DNA from: Actinernus sp. WN-2022
Lineage: Eukaryota > Cnidaria > Anthozoa > Actiniaria > Actinernidae
Length of the DNA stretch: 64,000 bases
Assembly: GCA_030867875.1 (NCBI GenBank)
Contig: JAOWCC010000577.1
Span: 71,047,012-71,111,011, forward strand
Reading direction: 5' to 3'
Made by a program: the position numbers and the translations under genes. Under the pieces are notes generated by a model that saw only the letters and a list, made by a program, of their open reading frames with translations, was not told the DNA's origin and ran no database searches. Positions 10,077-52,993 of the stretch are shown piece by piece; position 1 is the first letter of the stretch; the number at the start of each line of letters is the position of its first letter.

Positions 10077-10078
10077 TA

Positions 10079-10737
10079 CGGTGGCTGGTTAGGGCCATAT
10101 GATATTTAACTTTTGTTAATAACCTGAAAAAGTTATTTTTCTTTGGCGGTATAGTTTTTTTTTCTTCAAACAAATGAAAAGTACATATTTTTAAAATACA
10201 TGAATTTTTTTTTTCTCATAACTGTATATCTCGACTTATAACTCGAGATCTCGACTTATAACTGTATATCTCGACTTATAACTGTATATCTCGACTTATA
10301 ACTCGAGATCTCGACTTATAACTCGAGATCTCGACTTATAACTCGAGATCTCGACTTATAACTGTATATCTCGACTTATAACTCGAGATCTCGACTTATA
10401 ACTCGAGATCTCGCCTTATAACTGTATATCTCGACTTATAACTGTATATCTCGACTTATAACTCGAGATCTCGACTTATAACTGTATATCTCGACTTATA
10501 ACCGTATATCTCGACTTATAACCGTATATCTCGACTTATAAGTCGAGATCTCGAGTTATAAGTCGAGATATACAGTTATAAGTCGAGATCTCGAGTTATG
10601 AGAAAAAAACAAATTCATGTATTTTAAAAATATGTACTTTTCATTTGATTGAAGAAAAAAAACATTACCGCCAAAGAAAAGTAACTTTTTCAGGTTATTA
10701 AAAAAGTTAAATATCATATGGCCCTAACCAGCCACCG
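10079..10737. mobile_element. MITE with TIRs of about 140 bp around a 20-bp palindromic array
   Basis: The termini are inverted copies beginning CGGTGGCTGGTTAGGGCC, flanked by TA at 10077-10078 and 10738-10739. The arms extend to about 10216 and from about 10600 with few mismatches. There is no coding capacity. A right-hand half of the same element lies at 23231-23403. The TA duplication suggests Tc1/mariner-type mobilisation. Confidence 0.9.
10217..10600. repeat. 20-bp palindromic minisatellite inside the MITE
   Basis: About 19 units of 20 bp alternate two forms, ACTCGAGATCTCGACTTATA and ACTGTATATCTCGACTTATA, and the orientation flips near 10540. The core TAAGTCGAGATCTCGACTTA is a perfect palindrome, so neighbouring units can form cruciforms. 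Confidence 0.95.
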
Positions 10738-10821
10738 TACGTTCTCCCTTCCTACATCCCTGCGTTACAAAACGAGCAAAGTGATAGAGACATATATATT
10801 GAGCGGTACTTTCATATCGGA

Positions 10822-15586: not shown

Positions 15587-16775
15587 TCAGTAATTCAGGT
15601 CCCAGCAGCTGCAGTCGCGAAGGTAAAAGTCCATATTGGTCCGGAGTTGTAAATAAGAGTGATAGTTCTTGGGCAGAATTAATTTGCGGAAACATGTGTA
15701 AGTCCTCGGTCGAACTGCTGCTGGTGGCATCACTTGTAGACATACTGAAATACTGTAACCAGGTAACAGAACATCCGTAGCAGTACAGAAACGTAGAAAT
15801 TTGACGACGATGTCATCGCTTGATACCTTGAGGTATCGTTCCAGCCAGTGAAAAATCTGAGCTTCTTTGGGGTCGACTGGAATCATGATTAAGGAGGCAA
15901 TGATCCGGGATCCAGTTGGTACACAAAGTTCGTACAGGGATGCGACCTCAGCTCTTGTTATGCCATTCCAAAAGGAGCCCATTCCCTCCCGGATCTTTGT
16001 TAGACAAAAGTAGGGCTTTGTTACAAACTCAGTTGTTGCTACATGCAAAACAAGAGAGTTAATGTTCTCTGCGGAAGGTAACTGACGTGTGTTGTAATCC
16101 TCAAGCAAGTCCATTATCTGCTCTCTTGGAAATGGGCTATCACCAGCTAAGGCTTTTGATAAACACTCCCTCTCCTTTGGTGGAAGAATCCGCAAGAACG
16201 AATTAATCTTGCACTTGTCTGAGACATCACCTAGAAGTGTTTGCTGGACAGATGCTTGGACAATGCGCACTGGAAATGTACCGCATTGTACAAACTGATG
16301 TGTCACAATTCTGCCAATAACGACATAATCCTCTGGGCTGAGACTTGGGACTATCGGGATTGTGAACTCGCTATATGCTTCACTGTTAACGGACAAAAAG
16401 CCATCCCAAAACAACGAGTAGATCTCTCGTAGAACACCATCTCCAGAAGCTCCCTCTCCCTCTATACTCGCAAGGATGCGCTTCTGCAAAATGTTTCCAT
16501 CTTTGTATAATGAAATTAAATCCCTTACAATGTGCTCTTTGTTCACAATGATGTTTAGATCTCCATCCAGTGCATTAAAAGCCCGTTGTCTCTTCATGTC
16601 TAATTCATTATAATCAAAAGTTAGTTTTTCTTCTGCTGTCATGGGCTTATCGTCTTCCATCAGGATTTCGAGCAACTCATTCTCAACTGGATGGCTGATA
16701 GCAAAGTCTTGTTGAGAATCAATGGAAGCTCCAGTTTGACTTTCGCTGCAATCCTCTTCATCGGTACCAGTGGAT
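15587..16775 (-). CDS. HECT gene, exon 4 (HECT domain, stop)
   Basis: The acceptor TTTTTCAG at 16776 joins in phase 2 and reads STGTDEEDCSESQ before the longer open frame. HECT features are VRDLISLYKDG, PSLSPEDYVVIGRIVTHQFV, SLVLHVATTEFVTKPYF and the C-lobe FLRFCTATDVLLPG with RTYTCFRKLILPKNYHSY. The C-terminal 35 residues include the expected cysteine. A minus-strand ORF at 15483-15743 is a shadow in another frame. Confidence 0.88.
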
Positions 16776-19700
16776 CTGAAAAACGTGTATTACAATAGAG
16801 GTAATCGGCTAACGCTGTGGCCTCCAGATCATGTGATGTAAACAGATGCTACTCTGGGGAATTATTCCTTTTTCATTCTAATCATAATGCAGTCATGCCT
16901 ATCTGAATAAAATTAATTTTCAAAGATTCAATTCTCCAGAGTAATGTGTGTTTACATCACATGATCTGATTTGGGTGGCAACAGAGTTAGCCGATTACCT
17001 CTATTAACTCATTTTTATAGATTACAATATAGTCACATAAAATTTTAAAAAAGAACATATATATTGTACATAAATAAAATGCTATTAATGCGCCACAGTA
17101 CACCTTTTTATACAAATAAGATCTTACTTGACTGCCACTATTATTCTTATAACCCTAGTTCACGAATCACTAAGCCTTACGAATTACGAGGATATATTGA
17201 ACAAAACCCCGTATTGAGCACCAAAGTCTAACAGGATAAAGCCTGAGTTTTGTGCCGAGCTAAAACGGATTTCAGCAAACTTTTTTGTATTTCACAACAT
17301 TTACGTTGCTGTTGGACTGGTGAAAGTTAAATTCGAGTGTTAATCCAAAGCGAAAATGTAAAACAAAACATTCTCGTCAGGGCTAGACTTGGATATGTAA
17401 CACCAAACTAAAAATCAAAACAAACTAAACATTGTTGTCAGGGCTAGACTTGGATATGTAACACCAAACTTAAAGTACTACTAATTATAAGATCAAATGA
17501 CACTTCTCCTGTATTCTTCAATTGTCATTACCATTATCTCTACAATGTATGTAACAGTAAACTTAAGTCAAAATTCCCATGGGAAGTCTGATTATTTTAG
17601 CCATAATTTCTGTCCACCATTAATCAGTTTAGAATTGGATGACGTCATTCAAGCAACCCAACAAAATAGATGTGGCTACTTTAGTATGCAGAAGAAAAGG
17701 GCGTATAGAGAGCTAAACGTTTGAATTCTAGTCTGTGTCACGTACATGTTGTGTAGCTGTTGCTTACATGTCATGAAAAGACCGCTAAACAAACAGGTGC
17801 TCATTTGTAATCCGAGTAATGCTCCAACTTATGGATAAAATAATCAGCCTTTCCCTAATAATAATAACTATTAGTATATACCACACCAGTGAATATGACT
17901 TTTCGCCGAAGCGGCTCGGTAAATATCCACCACTATTCACCTCCACTTCGGTGAATAATTGTTAATTATTATTGTTGTTGTTATTCTGATTAGGAAATGT
18001 TTGTTTAATATGACAAAGGGGGCATAATGATATTGAGGGGGCTCTCAAAAAATACTGGAGTGACAAGAGGAGCTACAGTTCTTTTCACTGAGATTATCTG
18101 CTACTACAGGAGGGGAAGCTCACAAAATTGAAAAGATGGAAGGATGCTACGAACATTTTACGTTTCCAATTTTGATATCCTAATGCCCTTCGCTCCAGTC
18201 ATATCAAATGAACATTTCTGGTTACTACAAGACATTTGAGCAATTAAAGTTTGACGAATTGAAAAACAGACTCGTTTGTGAAATCCAGTTCATATATTCT
18301 TTGTGATGTGAATTTAGTGGAAAAAACACTTTGACTGTTAAATGTATTTTAAGTATACAATAGTTTGATTTATGTGTTGGCAATGTACTATACCTTTCTA
18401 TTTCTCTTGGTTGGAACACTGAATAGGGGCTGTCAAGAGAGAGTGTATCCAGCTCACAGTATTTGTCAGCATAACCATAGCCTTTAAACAATATGTCCGG
18501 ATCATCACACATCATGACAGGCTCATCTACAGCTTCCATGTACAGTGCACAATCACTCACTGGATCAGAATGCTTGATTGTTTGGCCAGGGCATATACAC
18601 AATTTAAAATGTTCTGGCTGTAATGCATGCGAACCAATCCAATCATACACTGCCAGCATTTGCTCATCCTTTTTGAAGAAACGAACAAGTTTACCTTTGG
18701 TTAGGTGGTTTACTGCCACTCTCACTCTTGGAATTCCTAACTCAGGTACAGGAGGTATTCTTGATGACCTTGTCGATCTTATGGCTTCCACCCTCGCCTT
18801 CTCTTTCTCCTCTTTGTACAAAAACTCAAGCTTCTCCTTTTCTTTGCGTTGGTACGGTCTTCCTCTAGACAACGTTGGATAGCTTCTTCTTGTTCTTTCA
18901 TCAGTTGTTCTCGTTCTTTGGATGTGCCAATAAGTTGAGATTCATTTGCAATTGCAGTGTTACTACATGGATGGTTTCCAGTCACTTTGGCAATCTGAGA
19001 GGTATCTACAGCAAAGTAATCTTCAGAATCAGATTCAGAAGAATCATCTTTAAGCTCATCTTTGTCCGCATCTTTGACTGGTAAAGTATATTTCATACGC
19101 CAGGCCTTACCATTACCTTGGTGATCTTGAGTGTTTGATGGTCCTGGAACTAAATCTAGCATTGGCTGAGGGTCATCATCACTGTCCCTTGACACATCAG
19201 GTAATACATAAGTACATGTAGGCAGAAGCTTAGATGTCAAGTAAAGCCTGGTCTGTGACAGTTTGTGTTTCTCAATGTACTTCTGTAAGTTAAATATGTC
19301 ACTACTATCATTTTCTGTGGTGCATTCTGGTATAGCCCCTCCTTTAAAATTTGCAAGGTCAAAGACCATGTCACTAGCACATCCATTTGAAGATATTCCA
19401 CCAGGAAAAAATAGCTTCTTTGACAGATTAATTAGGTCATCTTTTGTGGACTCTGATGGCACATCTACCCTTCGTGTACCTCCTCCATTGTTCACCCGAA
19501 CAGTTACAAAACGTTCTTGCTGGTGGACATAATGCATCCAGCCAATAGTTATTTTTCTTGTTTTACATGTATTTACCAAACTGGCTGAGTGGCTATTGGC
19601 AGGGCTTCTAGCCTTTGTTGTTGTGGACTTTCTCTTTTCTTTACCCCTCTTCAGCACCTCTATGAGTTTTCTCTTCCTTTCTTCATAATTACCATCTGAA

Positions 19701-23230: not shown

Positions 23231-23403
23231 AGTTATAAGTCGAGATCTCGAGTTATAAGTCGAGATCTCGAGTTTTAAGTCGAGATATACAGTTATAAGT
23301 CGAGATATACAGTTATGAGAAAAAAAACAAATTCATGTATTTTAAAAATATGTCCTTTTCATTTGTTTGAAAAAAAAACACATTACCGCCAAAGAAAAAT
23401 AAC
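23231..23403. mobile_element. right half of the 20-bp palindrome MITE
   Basis: Four 20-bp units (AGTTATAAGTCGAGATCTCG type) are followed by the arm with ACAAATTCATGTATTTTAAA and CATTACCGCCAAAGAAAA, as in 10550-10690. The outer end and left half are missing. It lies next to the presumed promoter of the HECT gene. Confidence 0.9.
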
Positions 23404-26281: not shown

Positions 26282-28641
26282 TCACAACAAAAGAACAAAC
26301 TTGGATTTTTGTTGTTTTACCAGACGCAGAGATTGTTTACCTTCATTAGTGATGTTATTACCATACAGATATAGTGTAGTTAATTTACAGTTGGGATGTG
26401 TTAGTGCAGTACATATATTATCAACACTAGTTATCTTATTATAAGACAGATATAGTGTAGTTAATTTACAGTTGGGATGTGTTAGTACAGTACATATATT
26501 ATCAACACTAGTTATCTTATTACCAGACAGATCTAGTGTAGTTAATTTACAGCTGGGATGTGTTAGTGAAATACATATATTATCAACACTAGTTATCTTA
26601 TTATGAGACAGATGTAGTGTAGTTAATTTACAGTTGGGATGTGTTAGAGCAGTACATATATTATCAACACTAGTTATCTTATTATGAGACAGATGTAGTG
26701 TAGTTAATTTACAGTTGGGATGTGTTAGTGCAATACATATATTATCAACACTAGTTATCTTATTATCAGACAGATGTAGTGTAGTTAATTTACTTGTTAT
26801 TAATTCACTAAAGCACTCAACACACTCGTCAGTTAATTCACACACCAACAGCGACAGTTCAGTTACGGTACAGAATTCATTCTCCAGTGATTGACATACA
26901 CGTTTTACTCCACACAATGTTAAATGTAAATTAGTGATGTGCAATGCATTAACATTAACTAACTGTGTAGATGATGATGAATGTTTTTTAGTAGTTTGCT
27001 CTTTATACAATGAACTGAAAATATCTAACAAAAAGGAGATTGCAATACAGTCCACATCAGTTATGTAATTAAAACTAATCCACCCCTCATTATCACAGTA
27101 TAGCTGGTATTCTTTATTTACAATAGTTCTAGCGAATTCTTTGTCTTTGTATTCATTCAGACACTTTACTCGTAGAAGTAGATTACTAGACGTTGAGTAT
27201 ATCTTATCAGCTGGCAGTTTATCCAATAATTCTTGCATCAGTTTGTCATCTTTATTCTCTGACATAATCCCAGCCATAAACTGGATGACCATGGAAGACA
27301 TATTCTCTACTTTTGGTATTTGTTTTTCCTTCACAAACCAACGAGCAGCGAAGTATTCTTGAAGTGTCAAATGGATAAAACAAAACTCCGTTGTTGGTTC
27401 GAAAGGAGATTGAGGACCACAATGAAGAAGACCGCTCGCTTTCAGCTGTTGGATTTCTACACCTGAAATATTGTATTTAGTCATATCTTCTTCTTCAAAA
27501 ATATATTTTTTCTCCAAAAGCAATTTCGCTGCCAACTCTGAAACTTTATTTAATGTTTCTTCAACCAGAGGTGTAGTCTTGAGCTTCTCAAGAAATCCCT
27601 TCTTTTTATACTCGCCCAGGTTGTGATGTTTTAGTTCAAAGATTTTAATAACTTTAGAATAGAGTTCAGTTATGGTGACAGGAAGATCTCCACTGCTTTC
27701 TTGTTCAATGTAGTGGTCCATGCACCAACACATTAGAAAACAGAGGACAGGAACGTGGGCAAAGCTTACCAGATTTTTATTCTTCATGATATGATCAAGT
27801 ACAGTGTTTTTCTTAGATTCATTTGCTCTGAAATGTTTTCCAATGTATTCTTTAACTTGTTGTTCAGAAAACCCTCTAACTTCCACGAGTTGCTCGAAGT
27901 GAATTCCTCCCAGCTCATCAGCTTCTTCTGGTCGAGATGTTACCAACAGTACCGAATTGCTTAAGATTCTTCCTCTCATCAGTTTGGCAATCAGTACCGG
28001 TACAGGCATGTTATCTCGAGGGTTATTTGAGTAGGTTTCTTCTGAGTTACCGGTAATATGATCTCGTTGTGAATATTCATCGTACCCGTCAAGTAAAATC
28101 AAAACCTCCTTAGGGTGTTGCAGAATGTACTCGAATAATAAATCATCGATAATCGAATGTTCATCCAACATTGAGAGGTTTAATAGTTCACGTAGATTAA
28201 GAGCTTTCTCTCCAAGTGAACTTAACTGTCGAAATGTCAAGAGGTATGCAAACTTGAAATCAATTTGGGCACTTGCTTCGACTTCAAATAACCTGTCGTA
28301 AGCCCAGTCACGAAGCAGTTTTTGGCAAAACAGAGATTTCCCAATCCCTGCTTTGCCAATCACGAGGATCGATTTAGGATTTTGTTGATCTCTCTCTTTT
28401 CCGAAGAAGATTTCTTCGCACCGATTGATCGGAGTTCCACTAACTCTGCTATAGTTGAGTAGCTTTTCTTCTTTTGATGTTCCTTTCGCGTTTTCATCCT
28501 TTACTGGCTTTCTCCCGTGTTGTATGACGAGATTGGTGAAGATATCGTCGGTCTTCACACTTTCAATCATGTGGGAGTCCACTAACTTCGGTACGAACTT
28601 TGTTTGCTTTTTAACGGATTCTTTCAACGACGATATCCACT
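26282..28641 (-). CDS. NLR gene, exon 4 (NACHT and LRRs)
   Basis: The acceptor is TTACCTTTCAG. This large exon holds the whole ATPase and all LRRs. The LRR units (KLTTLHLSHNKITSVDN) are 27 residues, 81 bp, and nearly identical at the DNA level (26380-26785), which points to recent expansion or gene conversion. The last unit ends LYLYGNNITNEGKQSLRLV, as in many NLR C termini. Confidence 0.95.
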
Positions 28642-31600
28642 CTGAAAGGTAAGAATTAACTGTTAGTTAACTTCTTTAATATTGTCCATTCTTGGTACAC
28701 GGCTAAATTAAAAGGTTTATGATATCTTTATGCAATCATTTATAGACTTTAGTGGGAGTAGTTACCATTGTCATATAAATGTATGTTTTTAGTTTTATTT
28801 CAAACTATTAACAGAAATAATAATACAAATGTAATAAGTGTGAAGTAGCATAAGTTGGAGTTGTATGTATGAAAATGATTTATGATATGGAACAATTGAT
28901 AGCGGGAGATTTCAGTTACCATGGTCATAATGTATACATGGAGTATTCAGTTTTTAGTTTATTTCACACTATTAACAGAAATAATAATACAAATTTAATA
29001 AGTGTGAAGTAGCATAAGTTGGAGTTGTCTGTATGAAAATGATTTATTGAGCTGAACAGAAAAACATTGTGAAAAACTCTAGAAAATGAAGCTATAAAAT
29101 AATGATGAATAATTATTATGGAAGATTGTATGTAGCCGGTTTTACACTGGGGTATTGCAATAAATTGTTTTACCCCCCTTGTGGAGGACCTCGGAATTCT
29201 TCAGCAGTCAGTAAGCGAATTTTTGAAAAAGTGCAATAACCCATTTGTTTCTGGTTAAAGATTTGTACGTTTTGTTACCTTAAGGATAGTCCAGAGTTAA
29301 TTTGATGTCTATCAGTGACATTACATATATATTTCTTCTCTTTTCAAGAATACAAGGCTTCTTTTTATAATTTTTCTTTTACTGACTATCCTTTCGTAGA
29401 ACGAGTTTGGTAAATAGGAAGCTCCCATTCTTGGTTTTGGTTATTATACAATTCAATAATGTCATTAGAAATCTAAGCCCTCCTTATATTATTACCACAA
29501 CACTTACACCAAAGTTCATTATTTTTTGGATTATTTTGCAGGTCTAATTACTGTAAACAAAGTAAAATCCCAGCACATTTAAAGTGGATATAAGCCCTAA
29601 TATAGCCAGTTATCTTTGATATTGATTGTACATGAAGTGTTTAGTCCAATGGTAGAATATTAATTAATTTTCTTGATTTAGGTGTTGCATCTACGAGAGA
29701 TAAAGGTTATTAGTGTATCATACCACACAAGTGAATATCACTTTTTTGTGTGCTCTGATTGGCTACTCAAACAGTGAATATGATTTCATATTCACTTCCT
29801 AGCAAAGCATGGACAACATTTTTGTCCATTTCGAAGAAAATAAAATAACTATTTGGTGTTGGCTATTGACCTGCAGTATGTTATATACTAAAACAATAAT
29901 TATTATTCACATGGGCGTCAGTGAATAGTGATGGATATTTACCTGACCGAAGTGGCTCGGTATATACCCACCACTATTCACCTCCACTTCGGTGAATAAT
30001 TGTTAAATATTTCCAATATGCTAATGATGTGATGTCATCACCAACATTTGCCGAATTTCTTTGTGCTAATTGTGAATTAAGCTATTTTCTAATTTAGAAT
30101 TTCTTTTTTGTAAAAACACTTTGATAAGCTTCCAATATAACTTAGAAATTAAAAATAGGTAATTTGTCTCTACCAGCAATAATGATGCTTTTGTATAATA
30201 AGTGATGTTGGTGATGACATCACACATTAGCATATTCAAAATATAAACCTTTATACCTCGTACACACAATACCCAAATCAAGAAATGTTCTACCGTTGGA
30301 CTATCCACTTCATGTCCAATCGATATCAAAGATAACTGGCTAGGGCTTATATGCACTTTAAGTTCTGAAGTGCCTTTCTTTGAACAATAGGAATCTGTGA
30401 ATCACCTTATAAAATAATAAATTAAATGCCATCCCCAATTTTGAAGCAAATTCTCTCAGGTGGCAAGAAAGAAGGGGGGGGGGGGGGGCATCAAAAATTC
30501 AAGAAACTGAGAGGGTGGGTCATTGAAAAACAGGTATAGAAAGCGGGGGCTGCTAATTTCTTATAATTTTAAGACACCTCCAATAATGTTTAAAATATTT
30601 AATTAACTGAAAACGGATATCAAAAGGTGAACCTGACAAGGTAGCCTTTCCTAAATTGCTTATGACAGGTCCAGGCATTTTAATTTCAGCTATTGGATTT
30701 CTATTTCAATCAACACTGAAAGGAAACTGATTCTTTTTTCATTTATTTTTATTAGTTTTGTTTTAGGGGGGGGCTGTATCATTTTACCACTGTGCTATGG
30801 GGTCATGACGTTTTTGTTTGGTTTGGAAGGGGGTCAAAACGTTTTGTTCAGATGTTTTGGCTCGTTTTTTTGCTGGGCCTTCCCGATATTATCTGCAGCT
30901 CAAATGGGATTTTGTCATTTTCCTCAGCAATACGTGTAAATAAATAAATAAATATTTCTTCTTCTTCATGTTTAGGGACCGGTCACTATTTAGAGGGGGA
31001 GGGCAGGTGCAAATAGGGGAGGTCACATGTTTTTATGCAGGAAAAAAAGGGGGAGGGGCAAATAAATTTATGCAGGCAATAAGGATGCCTGTCATAAAAC
31101 AATTACCAGTATCTCTGAAATGACACTTAAGAGCTTTGTACAACAGGAATCAAATTATTAAGCTGAACTGAACAGGCAACATGAATTTTAATAGGGGTGT
31201 GTGCATGAGAGGGCATTTCACCTGTTATAACACTGTGTGTGTGCTTGATGAATTTCCTCAAATACTATTCCTACTTCTGGAAATACACTCTCCATTTTAT
31301 ATTTTAGGTTTAATATTAGCATACTTCTAGTCTACACGACAGTTATATCCTTACAGATTCACTGTAAACATCCTACAGTACAAAATTGTATATGGGGCTA
31401 ATAAATATGTCTATGAATTGGGAGGGTCAGGAAGATTTGAACATGGCATGCCTCGTTTTGCACCAGCCCTCCCCCTCTAAATAATAACCAGTCCCTTACC
31501 AAAGGGAAGATTTATCCATCTCCAAATTACTTTCTTTTCCCATTAATGTGTAAGAAATACTTGCTGTGAATAAATAATTATTACTAACTAAAGTTTTGAA

Positions 31601-38320: not shown

Positions 38321-39329
38321 ACTGAAATCAAAAATAAGAAAATTACCACGTTTCACATTGACTTTCACTATAATTACCTAACATTCTCTTGGAATTCAAT
38401 ACCACACGTGTATAGTTGCTAATCGGTGTATATGTTGTGGTTCAATTATATCTTTGGTTCAAAAATTTTGAACCAGTACAAATTTTTTGAACCAGTACCA
38501 TTTTTTTGAACCAGTACCATTTTTTTGAACCAGTTCAAATTTTATTTACAAGTGTGAACTTGAAGTTTGGGGTAAGGTTTATGATTGGCTTTCCATGTAA
38601 GAAAATAGCATAGTAAGTTCTACAGAAGTAGTTTGGAATAAAAATACCTTTATACCTTGTTTGTGTTCATCTTTTATTTTATAGCTGGAATGTACTGGTA
38701 ACACAGTTACTTTGCGCAGTGATGTATTTTAATATGAATATAAACAGTTACAGCATTTCTTTGAGTCGGGGTGGCGCATTGTGCCATATTATCTCGCTCT
38801 TGCTCTGAGGGTTTTTCTCCGGCTCCCTTGATCCATCCACAACAGCTAACACGCTAAATTCCAATTTGATCTGTGGATTAGTTAGAAGTATGTTGTTTGC
38901 ATACTCGCATTTTCTTCTACTTCGAGTACTTCTAGTCAGAGTTTTTTATTCCATTTGGTAAGCTGAGTCTAACAAGTACGAGGGGTTACTTCAAGATCAT
39001 TTACACTCGTTTAATACTTTAAGATATTCTTTATTAGCTCTTTCGTAGAAGTCTTCTTCCAGATACAATGGTAGTCAGGTGATTCGCTTTTCTTTTGCTT
39101 TTTTTTAGCTCAGCTGCAGCTGTGATTATTCTGTAAAAGTCGGCTCGGTTAACACAGTTTGTTCAGTTTCGGCAAACGATTTCACACGGGCGTAGAGGGA
39201 GGTTGAGTTTGCGAGTTTTTCTTGAGAACCCTAGCTCTAGGTGGGTAAGATCTTGTTTACTGACCGGTTAGATTTTTTTTTATGGTTCAGGGTAGGGTTT
39301 TAGTTAGTTTAAAATTCCCAGCATAATTT

Positions 39330-39530
39330 TCCCACAAGTAGCCCAAGCTGAAATTCGCTGTAACATGGCACAGACATAGTTAAGGAACACAAGAACTTAG
39401 ACACTGTATAGGTTTTTGTCGAGTTTTATTCAAGATTTACGTTGTACATGGAAAACTAAAAAATGGAAAACTAAAAAATTCCATACAAATGCTGTTAAAT
39501 ATTATACAGATCCCAAGCTTGGGCTACCTG
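39330..39530. repeat. AGTAGCCCAAGC / GCTTGGGCTACCT inverted pair
   Basis: AAGTAGCCCAAGCT at about 39338 faces AGCTTGGGCTACCTG at about 39516. The termini match the MITE at 60252-60496, so this may be a smaller member nested in the 1.92-kb element. Confidence 0.5.
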
Positions 39531-39934
39531 TCAATTTTCCATGTAATTATGTCTGTGACACCGCGAACTCAACCTCCCTCTACGCCCGGGGGAAATTGTC
39601 TCCCGTTTGTTTCGAAGTACGAGTGGACTGAGCCGTAAAGTACATCTGATCATCTATAAACAATGTATTTTTCTGGATTTAGCTTTCTTACTTCCCCTGA
39701 GTTGATGCAGTTTTCATAAAAGAATGCAGTCAACACAAACTTCGTCTGTTTAAGGGGTCGTATAATACAGTTTTGTCCGTGTTGTCGTCCATGCAATTAT
39801 ATTTCCAAGTCCGATTTTGTTAGCAGTGCGCATATGCGAATAAAATTAAGAGACTGGAAAAAATTAGCATAAGGAGAGGGACTGGGTTCGACGATTAGTC
39901 ACCTATAGAATAAACGGTGGCGTAAAAATCAACA

Positions 39935-40085
39935 AGCGCTTCTGTGGCGCAGTGCGTTAATCGACTGGATTATCATCTACCAGGCGTTCCTCGTAATCCT
40001 GTCTCAAGTTAAGCCTGACCGGGCGAGGTTAGTAAGTGGATGGGTGACCGTCAATAAGTGGTATAGTAACGTGTCTCAGGGGGGT
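39935..40085 (+). repeat. chimeric SINE: tRNA-like head and 5S rRNA-like body
   Basis: A tRNA-type A box (CTTCTGTGGCGCAGTGCGTT) is followed from about 40008 by a clear 5S rRNA-like stretch: AAGTTAAGCCTGACCGGGCG, then AGGTTAGTAAGTGGATGGGT and GACCG. These correspond to the 5S internal promoter (A box, intermediate element, start of C box). The flanks are not 5S, so this is a SINE or pseudogene, not a 5S gene. It lies near the right end of the 1.92-kb TIR element. Confidence 0.75.
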
Positions 40086-40349
40086 CACGGGAAAAGGGGG
40101 ATGGGACTGGTGAAGGGAGGGTAGAAAGTAGAAGGAAGAGAGGGTTGATTTTTTTTTCTTTTTAAAACCCCCCAAAAAAAACTAAACCCCAAAAATCCCC
40201 AAAAATTAAAAAATCCCTTTTTAGAATCTTGAAAAAATGAACCAGTTCAAAAAAATGGTACTGGTTCCAAAAAATTGTACTGGTTCAAAAAATTTGTACT
40301 GGTTCAAATATATTTGTACCAGAGGTAATATTTGAACCACAACATATAC

Positions 40350-41589
40350 ATTTGTATATAACATTGAGTCTGTACAAATATATACCTGCAGGGAACAAAG
40401 TATCCCAGGCATCATTGCAGTTAATCGGCTGTATAGTCATCAGGTTTCAACATTATAATCGATATATCTCATGATATCCTAACTGGTGTTAGTAGAACCC
40501 CACTATCTCGAACATCAGGGTCCTACTGTATTAAGCTACGCAACTAGGGTTATATAATGTCCTCGATCCCAGGCTTGGCCGCGTGTTCAATGGCTTCTCT
40601 GTGGCAACGGATAAAATGGTGTTCTTCAGAGTGGATTTGTCGAATTTGGACTGAAGCCTGGTTCAGATTGATTGGTATATTTACATCGTAAATCTATCAC
40701 TTCGATGCGCCGGGAAGGCAAACGGCGATTGCATGCGTTTTACCAAGAAAAAATCAACCCAAATTGGAGTAGTTTGAGGGTAAGGTTTTCTCCTCCTACC
40801 TTCTCGTGGTATTACATGTATAATGCAAAAGTACAAGAGAAAAACTGAAACGCTCTCAGTACAAGAGTCACAGCCTTTTGTTATCAATCCAGTTATTAAC
40901 AATTCATTTCCTAACTTTTACATGGTAAACCAATAGAAAGTCAGAAAATTATAGCCCATCGGGCAGAATGACGCGACATACATCCGGGACATTCTATAGT
41001 CATCAGCGCCAAATTCAAAAGCTACTCAATGAATCGTGATGAAATTTACAAAGAAATGGTCTCAAACGCGTCAGGGAGGTTACGGTTTCACTCATTTGCG
41101 GAAAAACTAAATACCGTATGCATTAGGCCCACACGGATTTTAGTAGAACAGATATCATTCGATCATTTCTGCTCAATATAAAAGTTTTCCGCGTATTAAT
41201 AAGCTTATATATTTTGACCTAAAAATCGTTGTTTTTCGTAGTATTTAGAGGGGGAAATGGCTAATGTGTGACTTTGAGGGTAATTTTCTCTTTGACTGAT
41301 TGTCGTATTTCTTAGGCCCACACGGAAAAAGATAGACTGACATCTTACTAACCCGTGTACGTTTTTTCGTTTAAATCTGCCGGATATTATGCTTATATAA
41401 ATCGTGTTTTCTAGAACGCATCTGGGCGCCACAAATTCGCTTGCTAAATTTAGGGTTTTTAAATTCCCGGGGGTCTTACTTTGAGGCCTTAGCTCCTCCC
41501 CATCAGACAATGGCACATACGCCGCCTATAATTACGGCTGTAATTAGGTTAAGCCAGTACTTACAAAATTACCGCGCGCAAGCCGAAGC
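40350..41589. other. no gene; short dispersed repeats
   Basis: The stretch at 40831-40900 is similar to 57449-57511 (see findings). TTAGGCCCACACGGA occurs twice, near 41125 and 41314. No exon is supported. Confidence 0.4.
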
Positions 41590-44051: not shown

Positions 44052-44762
44052 GCCGAGAACAATAGAATTCTGCCCGATGGATTAAACACAATTCAGCTTT
44101 GACCTATTAATTGATTTCCGTTTCAACCTGAATGGTATGTTACTGTTGTATTGTATTCTGTTATCTCCTGATTTTAACGAGATTTTTGTGCAGACATTTC
44201 AGAATTCAAGTCATCTGAATCAAAACTATTATTTTCCTACTGAGCTTCTTGTGCTCTACGTTCTTATTCAACATGCATAACTTGAATATCGTGCAGCACC
44301 GAGTCATTTTTTCAATCAATATAATGCTCAAATGAAATAAAGAAAAGCTGAATACAACAGACTATAGGTCATGTATCATATACCTCATTAACAAATAAAC
44401 ACTACAAAGTATTGCACAACTTAACTAATTAATATTTTGTTGTTGACAAGAATTGAATTGTCCACAGAGAATGAAAATATATTGCCAAGCTGAAAGCCAG
44501 ACGACTCAAATATACACCAGTCCATGCCGAACTGATAGACCAGTTTGCGGTTAATTCCGACATTTTGAAAGGGGTGCATACAGTGTTTGTATGGGAATTT
44601 GATGCCAAATAATGTCCGTAAAATCAAATTTCTGAAATATTCACTGTCTGCAAACTTAAGATGCCAGGTAAAAGATTAACTGATCAAAATTTAAGGGATG
44701 TAGTATGGGCGGCCGTTACCACCAAAAATACAGAACAGGAATCATTTAACAAAGAATTGTGG
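44052..44762. repeat. partial copy of the 56-63 kb dispersed repeat
   Basis: Shared landmarks with 59238, 61450 and 56900 are ACATGCATAACTTG, CTCAAATGAAATAAAGAAAA, CAAAGTATTGCAC and CCAAGCTGAAAGCCAGACGA. Confidence 0.7.
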
Positions 44763-45816
44763 AATGATCAATACAAAACACGAACGGAATAGACAGAAAT
44801 GAAACCATCTAACTATCGCTTGCCAAATGGAATAGACAAAACACAAATGATAAAGACAAAACACGAACGATCTAACTACCGACGTAGAAATGATTCAACC
44901 AAGTATCAAATGATCAATACAAAACACGAACGGAATAGACAGAAATGAAATTATCTAATTATCTCTTGTCAAATGGAACAGACAAAACACAAATGGTAAA
45001 GACAAAACACGAACGATCTAACTACCGACGTAGAAATGATTCAACCAAGTATCAAATGATCAATACAAAACACGAACGGAATAGACAGAAATGAAGTCAT
45101 CTAAGTAGTAAGTTCTAACTATCTCTTGTCAAATGGAACAGACAACACACAAATGGTAAAGACAAAACACGAACGATCTAACTACCGACGTAGAAATGAT
45201 TCAACCAAATATCAAATGATCAATACAAAACACGAACGGAATAGACAGAAATGAAATCATCTAACTATCTCTTGTCAAATGGAACAGACAAAACACAAAT
45301 GGTAAAGACAAAACACGAACGATCTAACTACCGACGTAGAAATGATTCAACCAAGTATCAAATGATCAATACAAAACACGAATGATCCAACTCGCTTATG
45401 TCAAATGGAAAGATAACAATGAAATGATCCAACCTAAATACAAACGATCCAACGCAAAGTAATTCAATTCAACGTAAACACGAATGGTTTGGCGTGATGT
45501 CAAATGATCAAGTCAACAGTCGAATGGTTCAGTCGACGGGGGGTCTCCATGACGTCACGCACTGCAAAATTGGCGGCAAAACAAAGCTGCCATGTTTGGA
45601 CATGTTTGTCTCCTGAGTTGGATCTACCTGGACTGAACTAACAAATCTTCTACTAATCGATTCTGGTACTAAGTGTTTATTGCTATTTTACATCATCCTG
45701 AGAAGTTGTGAATAATATTTTATCAGCTTGTTTTGCTAGTCACCCAAATTAGTCTAGTCTAGCTAGGAAAATCGAAGGTCTTCCCGGTTGCAAAGTGGGC
45801 TTGAACTGATCTATTA
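44763..45816 (+). repeat. left arm: 146-bp minisatellite and unique inner part
   Basis: The landmark GACGTAGAAATGATTCAACC recurs at 44881, 45027, 45187 and 45333, spacing 146 bp (160 once, from a small insert). The inner part holds TGACGTCA, AATTGGCGGCAAAAC and GCCATGTTTGGACATG. Confidence 0.93.
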
Positions 45817-47705
45817 CAGGCGCGGATCCAGAAAAAAATCTGACCGGTTTCCGACTTCCCAAATCAAACTCCAAAATTGGAAATTTTACTGAACCCCCCT
45901 CCCTCTTAAATCTGGAAATTTTGACCGGTTTCCGTAAACCGTTTAAGGTGGCCCGCGGCTATTTATTTTGACAACGGGGGTATTTTTAAATCCGTGTTTT
46001 TGAATAGCTAAACATTATCCGATTTCCGAGATTTTTTGAACTTTTAATAACGAATCCTCGAATTTTATAAAAAGTACAATTAGAAAGTGATTAACAAAGA
46101 ATTGCTGAAGATTTAAGCGATTTTCCAAAACGTTGTTTTTTAGGAAAGAGCGTATATTTCAAAATCCAAAAGATGGATTTGTTCCATTTTACTTTCAACG
46201 AGTGCCCAACCTCCAAGGTCTGTGACAGGCAAGTCTCAGGTTAATTTTAACCCTAAACTATTATGCTCAGGCATCTGGTTCAACTGCCGGAGAAATATTA
46301 CAGTAATAATTAAATCGTACATACCATATGGAAGTTCAATACCACTTGAAACTTCTGTGCCAAAGGCAAGAAGATCGGAAATACTGCAACTAACGTTATG
46401 CGGCGACGAAGTAAGATAGGTTATTGCTGAATATTTGCGAAAATCGAGAAATTTGTATTCTTTCGGCGTCAAAAAAATTCACTCGTTTGTTTTTCTTAAG
46501 TTCCTAATATGACTTACAGTAGCATATTTTAAAGTACCTTACCGAGTTTCAGCGCGCTTTGACCATACGCTTTTGAGAAATAAAGGCTGTAAACTTCAGC
46601 TTGTGCGAGACTTCTAAAATCTAAATGCTTGGAAAACCCCTCATGTTCGCTAATTTATTAAATGGATTTGTTTTGAATTTCCGCACGGGTTCTGCCACTT
46701 GGGAATCGCGAGGCAAGGAATAATTAAAATTATAGTTGAAATTAAAATGAGAAATATAGGACTATCTTTTTTGGAGAACTGCCGGCTCTTTTTCTTCCTT
46801 CCCTTTACGTTTCTCCCCTCCCCCCTCTTAGCCCCAGCTGGGTAGCCGAGGATGACTAAGCCTAGCCTGCGAACAGAAAAGAGCCTGTTTGCTGTGGAAG
46901 AGCCTGTTCGCAGGCTAGACTAAGCCCATTTTTGAGTAAAAAACCCTGATAGAATATCATGCGGTTATATCATAGTAAAAGGTGTTGTAGTTTGGGTACT
47001 GGCGTGAATTTTTTTTTTTTTATAATTAGTAAACAAACTATCTCTAAATCTATATCAGCTATAGCGATAAAATCAGCCATCCGAAGAGCAGAAGTGATCA
47101 ATAATATCTGGTGCGATATAATACAAGCAAGAAACGATACGAGAATACAGTATATACATTAATTTGTTTTTACCAATTGATATTTTGCAGGCGCTTTTAT
47201 TTAAAGCCGGCCTGTTAAATTTCCGGTATCCTAGTGGTTTGGTCCCCGTGAATCCGATCTGCAGTAGTAGATGTGATCACAGTTTAAGCAAAATCTGTTG
47301 AATAATATTTAAATGTATTTGGTTTCTCTGTATTCTCCAAAGTTTGATTTATGGACTTTTTGGAATGCCACTTAGCCGGAAGTATAATATCTGTATGTCT
47401 GGAAACATTCGCGTGCATGCGTAACAATCTTTTGCTCCAACAGCATCTCATGCACGGTGAACAATACCCTCTATTTCTTGTTTAATACTCGCGATGTTAG
47501 TTTTCTAATTTGGCCATTTACATGGTCAAGGAGCTGGTTAATAAACAAAACGTGCGCAAACATCGGTTGTGTCTTCATCATAAGTTATCATATAAAACCG
47601 GAATTTCTATCTTCCTCGTACAAGTATGAAAATGCAATAAAAACTAAGGGTTCTCAATGGTATTTTTTAAGTAGTGAAACTAGAAGTAAATCCGGCGGAA
47701 CTTAC
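45817..47705. other. interior of the 8.2-kb structure, no gene recognised
   Basis: It begins with GGCGCGGATCCAGAA, a common repeat start. ORFs at 46222-46419 and 46236-46472 are mutual shadows without a domain. I looked for the catalytic part of an integrase on the minus strand here and did not find it. Confidence 0.4.
46863..46917. mobile_element. 55-bp Mutator-like mini-MITE, 9-bp duplication
   Basis: TAGCCTGCGAACAG and CTGTTCGCAGGCTA are perfect inverted ends; GACTAAGCC flanks both sides (46854-46862 and 46918-46926). Confidence 0.9.
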
Positions 47706-47876
47706 CAGATCTAGGAAAGTTGGCGACTATGCGCTTAATAAAAGTTTCCAGCATTTCGTCACTTATATTGCTATAACGAGAACTATTCGTCATTTCATAT
47801 TCTGCCATTCTATTCTCCACAGTCCGCTGACTAACTCCAAGCATTAATGCCATATCTTGATAGATAAAGTTATTTT
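47706..47876 (-). CDS. integrase-family N-terminal HTH exon (fragment)
   Basis: A 171-nt stretch between an acceptor (TTCAAAACAG) and a strong donor (GATCTG|GTAAGT) reads FIYQDMALMLGVSQRTVENR, then MAEYEMTN and later ISDEMLETFIKRIVANFPRS. This is the helix-turn-helix and linker expected at the N terminus of metazoan integrase-core transposases, a different subfamily from the gene at 10822. The catalytic exon is not seen downstream in the window, and no start exon is evident upstream, so this is an orphan exon or gene remnant. It lies within the 8.2-kb inverted-repeat structure. Confidence 0.65.
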
Positions 47877-48869
47877 CTGTTTTGAAATATGAACCGGCAA
47901 GAAAAAAGGACATTAAATCGTTTTCAGTGCTTTTCTATTTTATTTATTTTATTTATTTGCGTATTAGTAGAGTACAGGCCTTTAAAGTGCAAGTATCGCC
48001 ATAAAACAACATGAACTCTTTTTGCCCCAAATTCTATTTCTGATATTTTCCATGATAGATAAATTATGCTTTGTACATGTAAGTTACAGTACCAGGAAAA
48101 TGATAGTGTATATATTTTTATTTTGTTATTAGTGGTACAGGTTTATTGTTGCAAATTAGATATCACCCCCCTCCTTTGCATAGAGTAATTTACGTGTTGC
48201 CCCCTCTCTTGTGATATGATTTCACATTGTGCCCCCCCTCCCGTTTCTCGACCCCCTCCCCCTCCTGGTTTTGCACAGTCCCTTATCTCATGTTAACACA
48301 GTACAGTGTAGTACGTGGCACTATTACAGAGGTTATTACCTTTAGGCGAGCGTACTTCATATTTTGCGGTGCGTTATTGGCAGGATTATATAATACATAA
48401 ATGCATAAAAAATACAAATACATATATACAAATACACAAATAAATAAATATTTTATTCATGGCATGGCTCTCTGGAAGAGCATGATTATATGAAGATACT
48501 CTGTGGGTAAATGAAGAGCCAGCCATATGAATTCTGCTCCATAATATATAGAGCTTATGTATCGACTAAGTATCTAATACGGCTAGGTTTATTATATAAA
48601 TCTGCAAAGAACGCACCTAATATGAGAACGTATTCGCCGGCAGTAAACATAAAATGGCTTCTCGATTGCCATTTTCTGCAGTTTTTGTATATTTATATAT
48701 AATAAACAACTTATAAAGGCTCGCCAAAATACAAATGACTCGTAAAACTACAATGAGCCGAGTTAGCTGCTTAGCCGACTGATGACTTCTGTGTATTTCC
48801 AAGAGTCATTGATATGGAGCCTTTAGGCGATCCAAAATACGAACTGAATAAAAATACACAACCGTATTA
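47877..48869. other. interior of the 8.2-kb structure, no gene recognised
   Basis: AT-rich; a C-rich stretch at 48160-48290 ends in GCACAGTCCCTTA, resembling the GGGACTGTTC family end. Confidence 0.4.
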
Positions 48870-49141
48870 GGCCATCCCAATAAAATGTTTCGTTTCCCAT
48901 CGCCATCTGGCTCGTGATGGTGGGTCGGTCGGCCGGTAAAAACGTTAGGGGATCTGGAACCAAGTCGGCTTGAAGACACTTTTTCCTCTATTAGTTGTGG
49001 ATTGACAACTTGCACGAGAAAAGTAAGAAACTTTTCCACAAAATTGGGTCGGTCTTTATAAACTTTGAATTCAGTCTTTTGGATTTCCCCCCAAAAAGAG
49101 TCGGTCGGATGATGGTAAACAAAACATTTATTGGGATGGCC
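48870..49141. mobile_element. PIF/Harbinger-like MITE, 272 bp, TTA duplication
   Basis: Ends GGCCATCCCAATAAA and its inverse, flanked by TTA at 48867-48869 and 49142-49144. Subterminal parts share GTTTCCCATC and GGGTCGGTCGG. The 3-bp TTA duplication is the usual PIF/Harbinger sign. Confidence 0.82.
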
Positions 49142-49359
49142 TTAGCATGGTCGAGGCAAATTGCCGTATCAGATGTTTCAACAGAGAAGTTTGTATTACA
49201 TTCGTATATAAATTGTGCAAATAAATATTATTTTCTTTCCATAATAAGCAAAAATCTTATATGCTCGCTCGAGAAATGGGATTTACTATATAACAACAGC
49301 AACAATTTATTAGCATTCCCATGTACATAAATGGTATTGCCACTACATTACATATGTAA

Positions 49360-51058
49360 TTATATATATATAATAAATTTATTCATAAACTAATTACAAT
49401 AATAATATAATAAATGATTGAACAAGAGTAATTGTTTCAGTTTATTATTAAACTGTTTTTGGTGTAATTAACCGATTCCGTAACTGAAAGGCTTCAAAAA
49501 TGAAATGTCCAGTTTTTTTGCAAATAAGAGGGTCAATATTGTTGAATAAAAATAGGGTCTTTTCTTTGATATCTAAGTTTCTAAAGTGTTTATATTTCTG
49601 ACATATGTCTTCAAAGAATTGGTTTCTAATTCTATTATATAGGTCACAGTGAAATATGAAGTGCATTTCATTCTCAATATAGTTTGATTGACATTGTTGG
49701 CATGTTCTTAGCTCGAGGGGGATTCTAGGGTTGGAGTGTCTACCGGTTTCTATTCTGAGGTTGTGATTACCACATCTTAATTTCGTAAGCATTCTTCTAT
49801 GCTCCGTATTCTTAATTTGGTTAAAATATATAGAGCTGCTGGTATCATGCTTGAATAGCGAGTAAAATTCGAGTTTTCTGTTTATTTCGATGAGTTTTAA
49901 TTGATGTAATTTTGATTGATGAATAATGTTTTGCGTTACTTTAGGTATACATTTTGTTGTATATTGTTCGATGTTATGTTCTTGTCCATTATCAAGTGCG
50001 TCGAATAAGTTTAAAATTTTATTTATTGATAACATAAAACTTGCTTTATTGGAGGATGCTAAATCATTTGAGATAAGAAGACACTGTTTAGCGATGCTAT
50101 TATCAGGAAGTTGTTTGAGATGTAACCAAAAATGTAACATATTGCGATAAATTGTAGATTTCAAAGACAGTCTACCTACCTCATTACGAGATGCTACATT
50201 GGACGCTCTTTTATTTAATCCTAGATAATATTTAAAGAATTGGGTGTGGAGTCGTTCGATTGGGTCTGATTCCCATTTATGAAAATTCATACTATCATAA
50301 GCACCCCAAATTTCAGAGTTATATAATAAGATAGGTGCAAATAAGCTATCAAAAAGCTTATTGCATATATTTATAGGTATTTTTGTAAAATCAAGATATC
50401 TCTTTGTACCAAAAATAGAACGTCTATTTTTCTCAGTTGAGGTTATTTTTGATTTTGTGAAGCTACCATTACTGGAAATTGTGGACCCCAAGTAAGTGTA
50501 GTCGAGAGAATTCGTAATATGTGAACCGTTTAGGAAGAAATTGTATTTCTCTAAACTAGATTTGCGACACTGTTTTTGAAAAATTACAGTATTCGTTTTC
50601 TTTTTATTTATGGTTAACATCCATTGTTGACAATAATCTTGTAACGTGTTAATGGTATTTTGTAAACCTGCAGCACTAGTAGATATTAAGACAAGGTCGT
50701 CCGCGTAGATTAAACTATTTAGAGATGATCCATTTGGTAGAGAAACTGGGTCAAGCTCAGGAGTATTTTGTAAGATAAAAGGTATTTCATTCAAATATAA
50801 ATTAAATAAGAGTGGGGATAAAATACACCCTTGTCGAACACCTATATTGAATTTAAAATAATTAGTTCTCTTATTTCTTAATTTGATACTACATTCAGTT
50901 TTTGCATACATGTCTGAGATGATATTGAAGAACTTCCCTCCCATATTATAATTCAATAGTTTCGTAAATAAACCTGGATGCCATACCGAATCAAAAGCTT
51001 TCCGGAAATCAACGAAACAACAAAATAAGTTACCTTTGTTCGCATTCATATATGGTGA
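49360..51058 (-). pseudogene. 5'-truncated LINE with a 533-codon reverse transcriptase frame
   Basis: The open frame 51049-49448 begins inside the reverse transcriptase: CCFVDFRKAFDSVWH (catalytic D at residue 14), IGVRQGCILSPLLFNLYLNE, then YADD at residues 115-118 and YLGSTISSNGSF. The long thumb and connection follow. The C terminus has a CCHC knuckle (CQQC, then HFIFHC at about 452-470). The upstream half of the polymerase and any endonuclease are missing, as in normal LINE truncation. The 3' region ends in AT-rich simple repeats near 49360. The frame has no stop over 533 codons, so the insertion is recent. It interrupts the interior of the 8.2-kb structure. Confidence 0.93.
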
Positions 51059-51591
51059 TGGAAAGCCATTTCACTGTAACTACCTGAAATAGTCTCATAT
51101 TCGGTGCCCTCTTATGCATATTTCGTGCATTCTTGGTAGAACTGGTATTCTGATTCTGAGTCAAATGTCAGTGGCGATTGATAAAGATGTTGAGTGAGTA
51201 TTTCGTGGATCATTTCTACTGACAAAAAGAGTATGTAACTGGATTTCAAAAAAAATCACATACATGTACTTTTCCACTTGAGAACATCTGCTTAGGCGGA
51301 TTTACAGAGGCTCACAACAATTACATATGTGAAGTGTTGTATTCCGGTGAAATTTTCGATGCGAACTTGTAGCAGTTTGAACGAGGTATGCACATGCAGA
51401 ACTGAGCTATAAATGGCTCCAGGTATGCATGCATTTAAAGTCCGAGGCCGGAAATCTGTAAGTATAGAGGCGTCTGATTTCTCTTTGAACTGAACCATGA
51501 CAGAACATTCCAAATGAAAGTTAAATGTTCGGATATTTTTGTGTTATAATCAATGATGTAATTAAGAACTATTAAAATCTAAGAGGAATCA
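51059..51591. other. interior of the 8.2-kb structure, no gene recognised
   Basis: The minus-strand ORF at 51292-51513 has no known domain. Confidence 0.35.
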
Positions 51592-52993
51592 TAATAGATC
51601 AGTTCAAGCCCACTTTGCAACCGGGAAGACCTTCGACTGATTTTCCTAGCTAGATTAGACTAATTTGGGGGACTAGCAAAACAAGCTGATAAAATATTAT
51701 TCACAACTTCTCAGAATGATGTAAAATAGCAATAAACACTTAGTACCATAATCGATTTAATAGTAGAACCAACTCAGGAGACAAACATGTCCAAACATGG
51801 CAGCTTTGTTTTGCCGCCAATTTTGCAGTGCGTGACGTCATGGAGACCCCCCGTCGACTGAACCATTCGACTGTTGACTTGATCATTTGACATCACGCCA
51901 AACCATTCGTGTTTACGTCGAATTGAATTACTTTGCGTTGGATCGTTTGTATTTAGGTTGGATCATTTCATTGTTATCTTTCCATTTGACATAAGCGAGT
52001 TGGATCATTCGTGTTTTGTATTGATCATTTGATACTTGGTTGAATCATTTCTACGTCGGTAGTTAGATCGTTCGTGTTTTGTCTTTACCATTTGTGTTTT
52101 GTCTGTTCCATTTGACAAGAGAGAGTTAGATGATTTCATTTCTGTCTATTCCGTTCGTGTTTTGTATTGATCATTTGATACTTGGTTGAATCATTTCTAC
52201 GTCGGTAGTTAGATCGTTCGTGTTTTGTCTTTACCATTTGTGTTTTGTCTGTTCCATTTGACAAGAGATAGTTAGATGATTTCATTTCTGTCTATTCCGT
52301 TCGTGTTTTGTATTGATCATTTGATACTTGGTTGAATCATTTCTACGTCGGTAGTTAGATCGTTCGTGTTTTGTCTTTACCATTTGTGTTTTGTCTGTTC
52401 CATTTGACAAGAGATAGTTAGATGATTTCATTTCTGTCTATTCCGTTCGTGTTTTGTATTGATCATTTGATACTTGGTTGAATCATTTCTACGTCGGTAG
52501 TTAGATCGTTCGTGTTTTGTCTTTACCATTTGTGTTTTGTCTGTTCCATTTGACAAGAGATAGTTAGATGATTTAATTTCTGTCTATTCCGTTCGTGTTT
52601 TGTATTGATCATTTGATACTTGGTTGAATCATTTCTACTGCGGTAGTTAGATCGTTCGTGTTTTGTCTTTACCATTTGTGTTTTGTCTGTTCCATTTGAC
52701 AAGAGATAATTAGATGATTTCATTTCTGTCTATTCCGTTCGTGTTTTGTATTGATCATTTGATACTTGGTTGAATCATTTCTACGTCTGTAGTTAGATCG
52801 TTCGTGTTTTGTCTTTATCATTTGTGTGTTGTCTGTTCCATTTGACAAGAGATAGTTAGATGACTTCATTTCTGTCTATTCCGTTCGTGTTTTGTATTGA
52901 TCATTTGATACTTGGTTGAATCATTTCTACGTCGGTAGTTAGATCGTTCGTGTTTTGTCTTTACCATTTGTGTTTTGTCTATTCCATTTGGCA
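51592..52993 (-). repeat. right arm: seven 146-bp units and inner part
   Basis: The inverted landmark CTACGTCGGTAG (or a variant) recurs at 52051, 52197, 52343, 52489, 52635, 52781 and 52927, an exact 146-bp period. The inner part matches the left arm with few differences down to AATAGATCAGTTCAAG at 51592. Confidence 0.95.

What the first reader, a model, noticed from the sequence alone, without database searches (positions are those of the whole stretch)
44763..52993. 8.2-kb inverted-repeat structure with mirrored 146-bp minisatellites at both ends
Seen: two inverted arms of about 1.05 and 1.4 kb, each with the same unique inner part of about 430 bp (including TGACGTCA and a GGCGGCAAAA box) and an outer array of the same 146-bp unit, four copies on one side and seven on the other. 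The interior holds an integrase-type HTH exon plus later insertions. Inference: a large DNA transposon whose termini are minisatellites, possibly mobilised by an integrase-core transposase. Different array lengths show that the termini expand and contract after insertion. I know of no described family with this layout, but cannot search.
Basis: partly seen in the sequence, partly recalled or inferred. Interest (0 to 1): 0.75.

Follow-up and report, generated by a model that had tools for sequence, protein, structure and literature searches.

The report
Transposon family with minisatellites near ends
This is one damaged copy of an apparently recently active cut-and-paste transposon family, with dozens of copies in an animal genome, whose long inverted ends carry a repeat array just behind a short conserved tip; the design is known from other transposons, but we did not find it described for this transposon superfamily.

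Summary
The inverted arms and 146-bp arrays are real and belong to a DNA transposon family. Of 31 candidate pairs of ends, 26 carry an exact 6-bp target duplication (wrong partners 2 of 930). The arrays are not the termini: a conserved 59-bp tip, TATGGGCGGCCGTTACC..., lies outside them (window 44704-44762); the window copy has lost its right tip. The exact tip occurs 228 times; neighbours under 30 kb apart face '+ then -' 85 times, '- then +' never. TAYGG..CCRTA tips and 6-bp duplications are published marks of IS3EU. The interior exon is the helix-turn-helix exon of a PF24764 integrase-type transposase (70% identical to a Pocillopora protein). No core was found in 28 fetched regions, but the closest of 88 scored cores (72%) lies in a 26.9-kb family element with an intact duplication. 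Array number varies between copies and between ends. Likely an IS3EU family with foldback-like arms: a new variant of a known kind.

The parts
44704..44762 (+). left terminal tip, 59 bp, TATGGGCGGCCGTTACCACCAAAAATACAG...
   Evidence: found by lining up the outer ends of 44 arms, 37 of which show at least part of it in the stretch printed; window hit at 44704; 228 exact copies of its first 26 bases in the genome
44763..45382 (+). left subterminal array, 4.2 x 146 bp
   Evidence: 5 CRAAYGR motifs per unit, one strand only, measured in copy L009
45383..45816 (+). left inner arm (U), 434 bp, with TGACGTCA and GGCGGCAAAA
   Evidence: 81-100% identical at the 40 places scored of 286 candidates (query 45390-45816)
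45817..45946 (+). interior piece shared with other copies
   Evidence: no match listed for 45947-46749
46750..49292 (.). shared interior of the family (46750-46862 and 46918-49292)
   Evidence: 91-99% identical in the fetched regions that match it
47704..47886 (-). helix-turn-helix exon of a PF24764-type transposase, open, followed by a GT that looks like a splice donor
   Evidence: 70% identical to P0122 residues 101-161; donor read by eye
49293..51047 (-). LINE fragment with reverse transcriptase, inserted later in this copy
   Evidence: RVT_1 E 9e-28 for the frame 49448-51070; other copies join 49292 to 51048
51048..51591 (.). shared interior; 51154-51591 also occurs inverted beside the left arm in other copies, so it was probably part of a longer terminal repeat
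51592..52007 (-). right inner arm (U)
52008..52993 (-). right subterminal array, 6.7 x 146 bp, cut short; right tip missing

Best explanation
A non-autonomous member of a cut-and-paste DNA transposon family, most likely IS3EU/GingerRoot. Shown: conserved TATGG..CCATA tips, 6-bp target duplications, terminal inverted repeats of about 0.8-1.3 kb made of tip, 146-bp array and inner arm, and a shared interior holding only the DNA-binding exon of a PF24764 (DDE integrase-type) transposase. Inferred: a transposase made elsewhere in the genome binds the ends, the motifs spaced mostly 20 bp apart in the arrays being its likely binding sites, and inserts the element with a 6-bp stagger; arrays change length by unequal exchange or slippage. 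The window copy later took a LINE fragment and lost its right tip.
For: 228 exact tips; adjacent places under 30 kb apart are '+-' 85, '++' 5, '--' 2, '-+' 0. Reversed-pattern control 0. 6-bp duplications in 26 of 31 candidate pairs, none at 3, 4, 5, 7, 8 or 9 bp; wrong partners 2 of 930. IS3EU in print: TA..TA tips, usually 6 bp; TAYGG..CCRTA, 6 bp, in rust fungi. Of 75 HTH rows typed out of the 128, 59 lie inside an exact pair, 15 within 12 kb of one tip, 1 neither; left out were one 64% gene and 52 short or under-50% rows. Of 88 scored core matches (of 1894 candidates) one lies inside a pair, and it is the most identical (72%, next 51%): C888:90807189-90834127, AAGGAG on both sides. The pairs sum to 0.69 Mb of 1390 Mb. 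Its core exon is open and keeps the second D and the E of DDE. A second family in the window with TACGG tips also pairs, and the two most identical copies of its neighbouring PF24764 integrase (100%, and a decayed one at 80%) both lie beside such tips.
Against: 5 of 31 pairs lack a duplication; one of the 26 (L036 with L019) was paired after I had seen the flanks, so 25 of 30 without it. The HTH exon of the 26.9-kb element is only 64% identical in protein to the family's exon and blastn finds no DNA match, so its gene is not the direct parent and may be nested; a 93% family exon lies elsewhere in that element. No copy joining the family's own exon to a core was seen, but only 88 of 1894 core candidates were scored. 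That PF24764 proteins are the IS3EU transposases is inferred, not read in a paper; no tree with Repbase IS3EU proteins could be made. Binding to the arrays is untested. The window copy, lacking its right tip, has no testable duplication.
Confidence: 0.88

Rival explanations
1. Two separate truncated transposon copies lie back to back: the inner edges (45816, 51592), which end in TA..TA, are the real termini and the arrays are internal.
For: Inner edges read ...TCTATTA / TAATAGA...; outer array edges in the window break the 146-bp unit at different phases.
Against: Genome copies pair with arrays outside (85 '+-', 0 '-+'), have tips outside the arrays with 6-bp duplications, and share the interior between the inner edges.
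Confidence: 0.01
2. A local inverted duplication of satellite DNA, not a transposon.
For: Arrays of a 146-bp unit in inverted orientation; one fetched locus, L020, shows local tandem duplication of the left end with a period of about 2147 bp.
Against: Dispersed copies on many contigs with exact tips and target duplications.
Confidence: 0.01
3. A DNA transposon of another superfamily, or a new one, with 6-bp duplications; the HTH exon and the core gene are captured passengers.
For: Only one of 88 scored core matches lies in any of the 85 exact pairs; one subfamily (L015, L016, L018, L019, L032-L036) shows no P0122 match in the stretches fetched.
Against: The HTH exon is in 14 of 17 fetched loci of the main subfamily, and 74 of 75 typed places of it lie in a pair or within 12 kb of a tip; TAYGG tips and 6 bp fit IS3EU; a second TACGG family is also tied to PF24764 genes.
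Confidence: 0.1

Closest known systems
IS3EU/GingerRoot superfamily (PMC10045372: first of five parts and passages; PMC12730594: passages)
   Same: TA..TA tips (TAYGG..CCRTA in rust fungi); usually 6-bp target duplications; DDE transposase related to IS3/IS481 and integrases
   Different: The fungal IS3EU passages describe terminal repeats only as longer than 30 bp; 'tandem repeats' occurs 0 times in PMC10045372; here repeats of about 1 kb carry 146-bp arrays
Tetris, foldback transposon of Drosophila virilis (PMC4079207, abstract and section list)
   Same: Apparently non-autonomous, inverted repeats with ~220-bp internal tandem repeats, outer ends shared with another element (DAIBAM)
   Different: Different host; no transposase named in the abstract; target duplication length not seen there; the family here has 6-bp duplications and a recognisable transposase exon
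Galileo, P superfamily (PMC4168063, abstract and section list)
   Same: Inverted repeats extended in three copies by internal tandem repeats, insertions or other sequence; ends more conserved than the rest
   Different: 7-8 bp duplications and a P-type transposase
Merlin elements with internal tandem repeats (PMC8101967, passages)
   Same: Tandem repeats carried within a cut-and-paste DNA transposon
   Different: IS1595-type transposase; the passages do not describe paired arrays in long inverted arms

Membership tests
IS3EU/GingerRoot | TA..TA tips, in rust fungi TAYGG..CCRTA | tested here: met
   TATGG..CCATA in 228 exact places
IS3EU/GingerRoot | usually 6-bp target duplications | tested here: met
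   26 of 31 candidate pairs; control 2 of 930; also the 26.9-kb element
IS3EU/GingerRoot | encodes or derives from an integrase-type DDE transposase | tested here: met
   HTH exon of a PF24764 protein; one 26.9-kb family element holds an HTH and a core exon, though its HTH is only 64% identical to the family's
IS3EU/GingerRoot | transposase falls in the IS3EU clade of a phylogeny | not tested
   Repbase IS3EU proteins are not available here
Foldback-type element (Tetris, Galileo, FB) | long inverted repeats containing tandem repeats of variable number | tested here: met
   a structural description, not descent
P superfamily (Galileo) | 7-8 bp target duplications | tested here: not met
   0 of 31 at 7 or 8 bp
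Polinton/Maverick | AG..CT tips (recalled); DNA polymerase and capsid genes (recalled) | tested here: not met
   tips are TATGG; the viral genes were not searched for
Ginger1/Ginger2 | TGT..ACA tips and 4-5 bp duplications (recalled) | tested here: not met
   TATGG tips, 6 bp

The most novel reading that the evidence does not exclude
In this genome, PF24764 (IS3EU-like) transposons repeatedly build minisatellites into their ends (146-bp units in this family; a 20-bp array in the TACGG family, seen so far only in its window copy) as phased, ~20-bp-spaced binding platforms for the transposase HTH domain, and intact non-autonomous copies keep an HTH-only reading frame that acts as a trans regulator of transposition.
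Probability: 0.15. Interest if true: 0.65.

Novelty: new variant of a known kind. Interest (0 to 1): 0.42.

Why it matters
It is a clear, genome-wide case of a transposon that carries and spreads minisatellite seeds, with tips, target duplications and array numbers all readable, and a candidate transposase-bearing copy. That makes two questions testable: whether arrays in transposon ends are binding platforms, and whether transposons are a source of dispersed satellite DNA in this animal. It also ties the large, mostly unnamed PF24764 protein family of animals to TAYGG..CCRTA elements.

Tried and rejected
Rejected: local satellite duplication and the back-to-back truncated-copies reading (see rivals). 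For a while I held the second reading, from the TA..TA look of the inner edges; genome copies refuted it. I first took the integrase ORF 10711-11943 and the array fragment 23231-23403 as one 13-kb element; the fragment matches a half of the 10077-10739 palindrome and breaks off on both sides, so that idea was dropped.

Led nowhere: viral-contig scans with two DNA patterns (none) and two proteins (2 and 1 pattern matches, none confirmed); solved-structure and NCBIfam searches with the HTH exon (one weak match each, E 0.5 and 0.03); a folded model of P0122 (mean pLDDT 65, pTM 0.42), whose best matches are retroviral integrases with IstA, TnsB and MuA among them, as expected for an integrase core, so weak evidence only.

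Print searches bearing on this layout or superfamily: (listings), with passages or abstracts of six papers: PMC10045372, PMC12730594, PMC4079207, PMC4168063, PMC2872659 (coral MITEs, TTAA/piggyBac type), PMC8101967. Repbase and Dfam could not be searched, so this family may be listed there.
Full report
The observation. Two inverted arms are present as described. Tandem Repeats Finder gives 4.2 copies of a 146-bp unit at 44763-45382 and 6.7 copies at 52008-52990. The arms align inverted over 1058 columns at 94.3%. Each arm has a unique inner part (434 bp on the left). Between them lie an HTH exon (47704-47886, minus strand) and a LINE reverse transcriptase frame (RVT_1, E 9e-28).

What the genome shows. 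The window lies in a 1.39-Gb assembly of 1772 contigs. A search with 427 bp of the inner arm scored 40 of 286 candidates, at 81-100% identity, many in pairs facing each other. I fetched 28 regions (two elements span two regions each). Fifteen loci hold arms of both orientations, always in the order array outside, inner arm inside; 11 of the 15 carry the HTH exon between them.

The true ends. Lining up the outer edges of 44 arms revealed a shared sequence outside the arrays, at least partly visible in 37 of them: TATGGGCGGCCGTTACCACCAAAAATACAG..., 59 bp, directly followed by the first unit. The window copy has it on the left at 44704. On the right the array stops inside its outermost unit at 52993, and about 117 bp are missing compared with the L009 arm. 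So the arrays are subterminal, not terminal.

Census and target duplications. The first 26 bases of the tip, with up to one mismatch, occur 136 times forward and 139 times reverse; the reversed-pattern control gives 0. Exact copies, listed by preceding base, number 31 + 80 + 36 + 81 = 228. Neighbouring places under 30 kb apart are '+-' 85 times, '++' 5, '--' 2, '-+' 0; pair lengths run from 0.83 to 26.9 kb, median 7.18 kb; 58 of the 228 places are in no such pair. Of 31 candidate pairs whose flanks I read, 26 carry an identical 6-bp duplication, none 3, 4, 5, 7, 8 or 9 bp; wrong partners match at 6 bp in 2 of 930. Twenty of the 31 were adjacent pairs taken in listing order, skipping one already fetched (18 of 20 fit). 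Eleven came from the fetched regions (8 of 11 fit); among these, L019's right end fails with L019's left end but fits L036's left end, a pairing made after I had seen the flanks. Without it the count is 25 of 30. The 26 target sequences look varied.

Structure of the copies. Copy L009 runs 6.55 kb from tip to tip. The interior pieces 45817-45946, 46750-46862, 46918-49292 and 51048-51591 recur in the main subfamily, mostly at 91-99% identity with some pieces at 84-90%; the LINE fragment 49293-51047 matched none of the 28 regions. 51154-51591 also appears inverted beside the left arm in other copies, so the ancestral terminal repeat was probably longer. The number of repeats differs between copies and, in L012, L015 and L020/L021, between the two ends of one copy. 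Inner arms of one element are 95.6-100% identical (mean 98.7%, 14 elements); between elements the mean is 95.5% (392 comparisons). A diverged subfamily (L015, L016, L018, L019, L032-L036; inner arm 81-90% to the window's) shows no P0122 match in the stretches fetched and shares only a 92-bp piece of this interior, seen in five of them.

Fine structure of the array. In the left terminal repeat of L009 the motif CRAAYGR occurs 26 times, all on one strand; 14 of the 25 gaps are 20 bp and 6 are 43 bp. It runs through the array and the outer 170 bp of the inner arm. One unit has 5 (shuffle mean 0.44, 0 of 1000 shuffles reach it); the first 170 bp of the inner arm have 5 (mean 0.42, 0 of 1000); the rest of the inner arm has 0. 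I chose the motif after reading the sequence, so the shuffle counts are descriptive. I infer, and did not test, that these are protein binding sites about two helical turns apart.

The protein. The exon is 70% identical to residues 101-161 of P0122 (Pocillopora verrucosa, PF24764 E 1e-79). No other part of P0122 matches the interval between the arms, and only this exon region matches in the fetched regions at E 1e-3. In the genome the exon gave 128 matches of 150 scored, 519 candidates. Fifteen rows, the window's included, are full length, open and at least 89% identical; about 50 break after residue 42 with a TGA. Among 14 fetched copies compared, 5 are intact, 7 share a 2-bp deletion and 2 are otherwise broken. 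So the exon is not needed in cis. Against that, the six intact copies at hand (window included; three haplotypes) differ by synonymous changes only (2 to 4 per pair, 0 non-synonymous), a hint of past constraint on very few sites; two broken copies carry 1 and 3 non-synonymous changes.

Source of transposase. P0122 in the genome gave 88 scored of 1894 candidates. The only match above 51% identity is a core exon at C888:90815334-90815891, 72%. It lies inside a tip pair, C888:90807189-90834127, with AAGGAG on both sides, and is the only one of the 88 inside any exact pair. Its exon is open and keeps the second D and the E of the DDE triad (triad positions from the conserved columns). An HTH exon lies 1.1 kb upstream (64% identical, open) and a 93% family exon lies nearer the right end on the other strand. 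The gene is thus carried between family tips, but it is too diverged to be the direct parent of the common copies and could be nested; most candidates were not scored.

A second family in the same window. 10077-10739 is a palindrome with tips TACGGTGGCTGG..CCAGCCACCGTA and a central 20-bp array. Its tip occurs 28 + 25 times, control 0; I paired 46 of the 53 places into 23 pairs of 465 bp to 9.9 kb, by hand. It abuts a PF24764 integrase frame (10711-11943). That protein gave 102 matches, 101 of 3116 candidates scored. The two most identical (100% here; 80% at C1312:40760460, with five stops) both lie beside such tips, the second about 3.5 kb from one with a single mismatch. This supports PF24764 proteins as transposases of TAYGG..CCRTA elements.

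Place among known things. Published IS3EU marks, TA..TA tips with usually 6-bp duplications (PMC10045372) and TAYGG..CCRTA with 6 bp in rust fungi (PMC12730594), are met. Tandem repeats inside inverted repeats are known from Tetris and Galileo (abstracts), and inside Merlin elements (passages). The combination was not found in the searches named under Tried and rejected; Repbase and Dfam were out of reach. I therefore call it a new variant of a known kind.

Noticed in passing
window 10077-10739 and 23231-23403: 663-bp palindromic element with TACGG..CCGTA tips and a central 20-bp array, abutting an intact PF24764 integrase frame (10711-11943); 20 of 23 hand-made pairs of this tip are 2.9-6.6 kb long.
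   Followed up: partly
window 38427-40350: Third inverted-repeat structure: TGTATATGTTGTGGTTCAA arms with 19-bp arrays just inside them at both ends.
   Followed up: no
window 15587-16789 (-): 400-aa open frame with a weak HECT ubiquitin-transferase match (E 2.6e-4, below Pfam's cut-off), 3.6 kb from the integrase frame.
   Followed up: no
window 26282-28666 (-): 794-aa open frame that looks by eye like a NACHT NTPase with leucine-rich repeats (NLR-like); an 81-bp tandem repeat lies in its repeat region. No family search was run on it.
   Followed up: no
L020 1442-7359 (C635:47849000-47858999): The left end of one family element, with flanking DNA, is locally duplicated in tandem with a period of about 2147 bp, 99% identical.
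   Followed up: partly
HTH exon in intact copies (L009, L010, L011, L023, L024, window): All differences between intact copies of the exon are synonymous, though many other copies carry a shared 2-bp deletion.
   Followed up: partly
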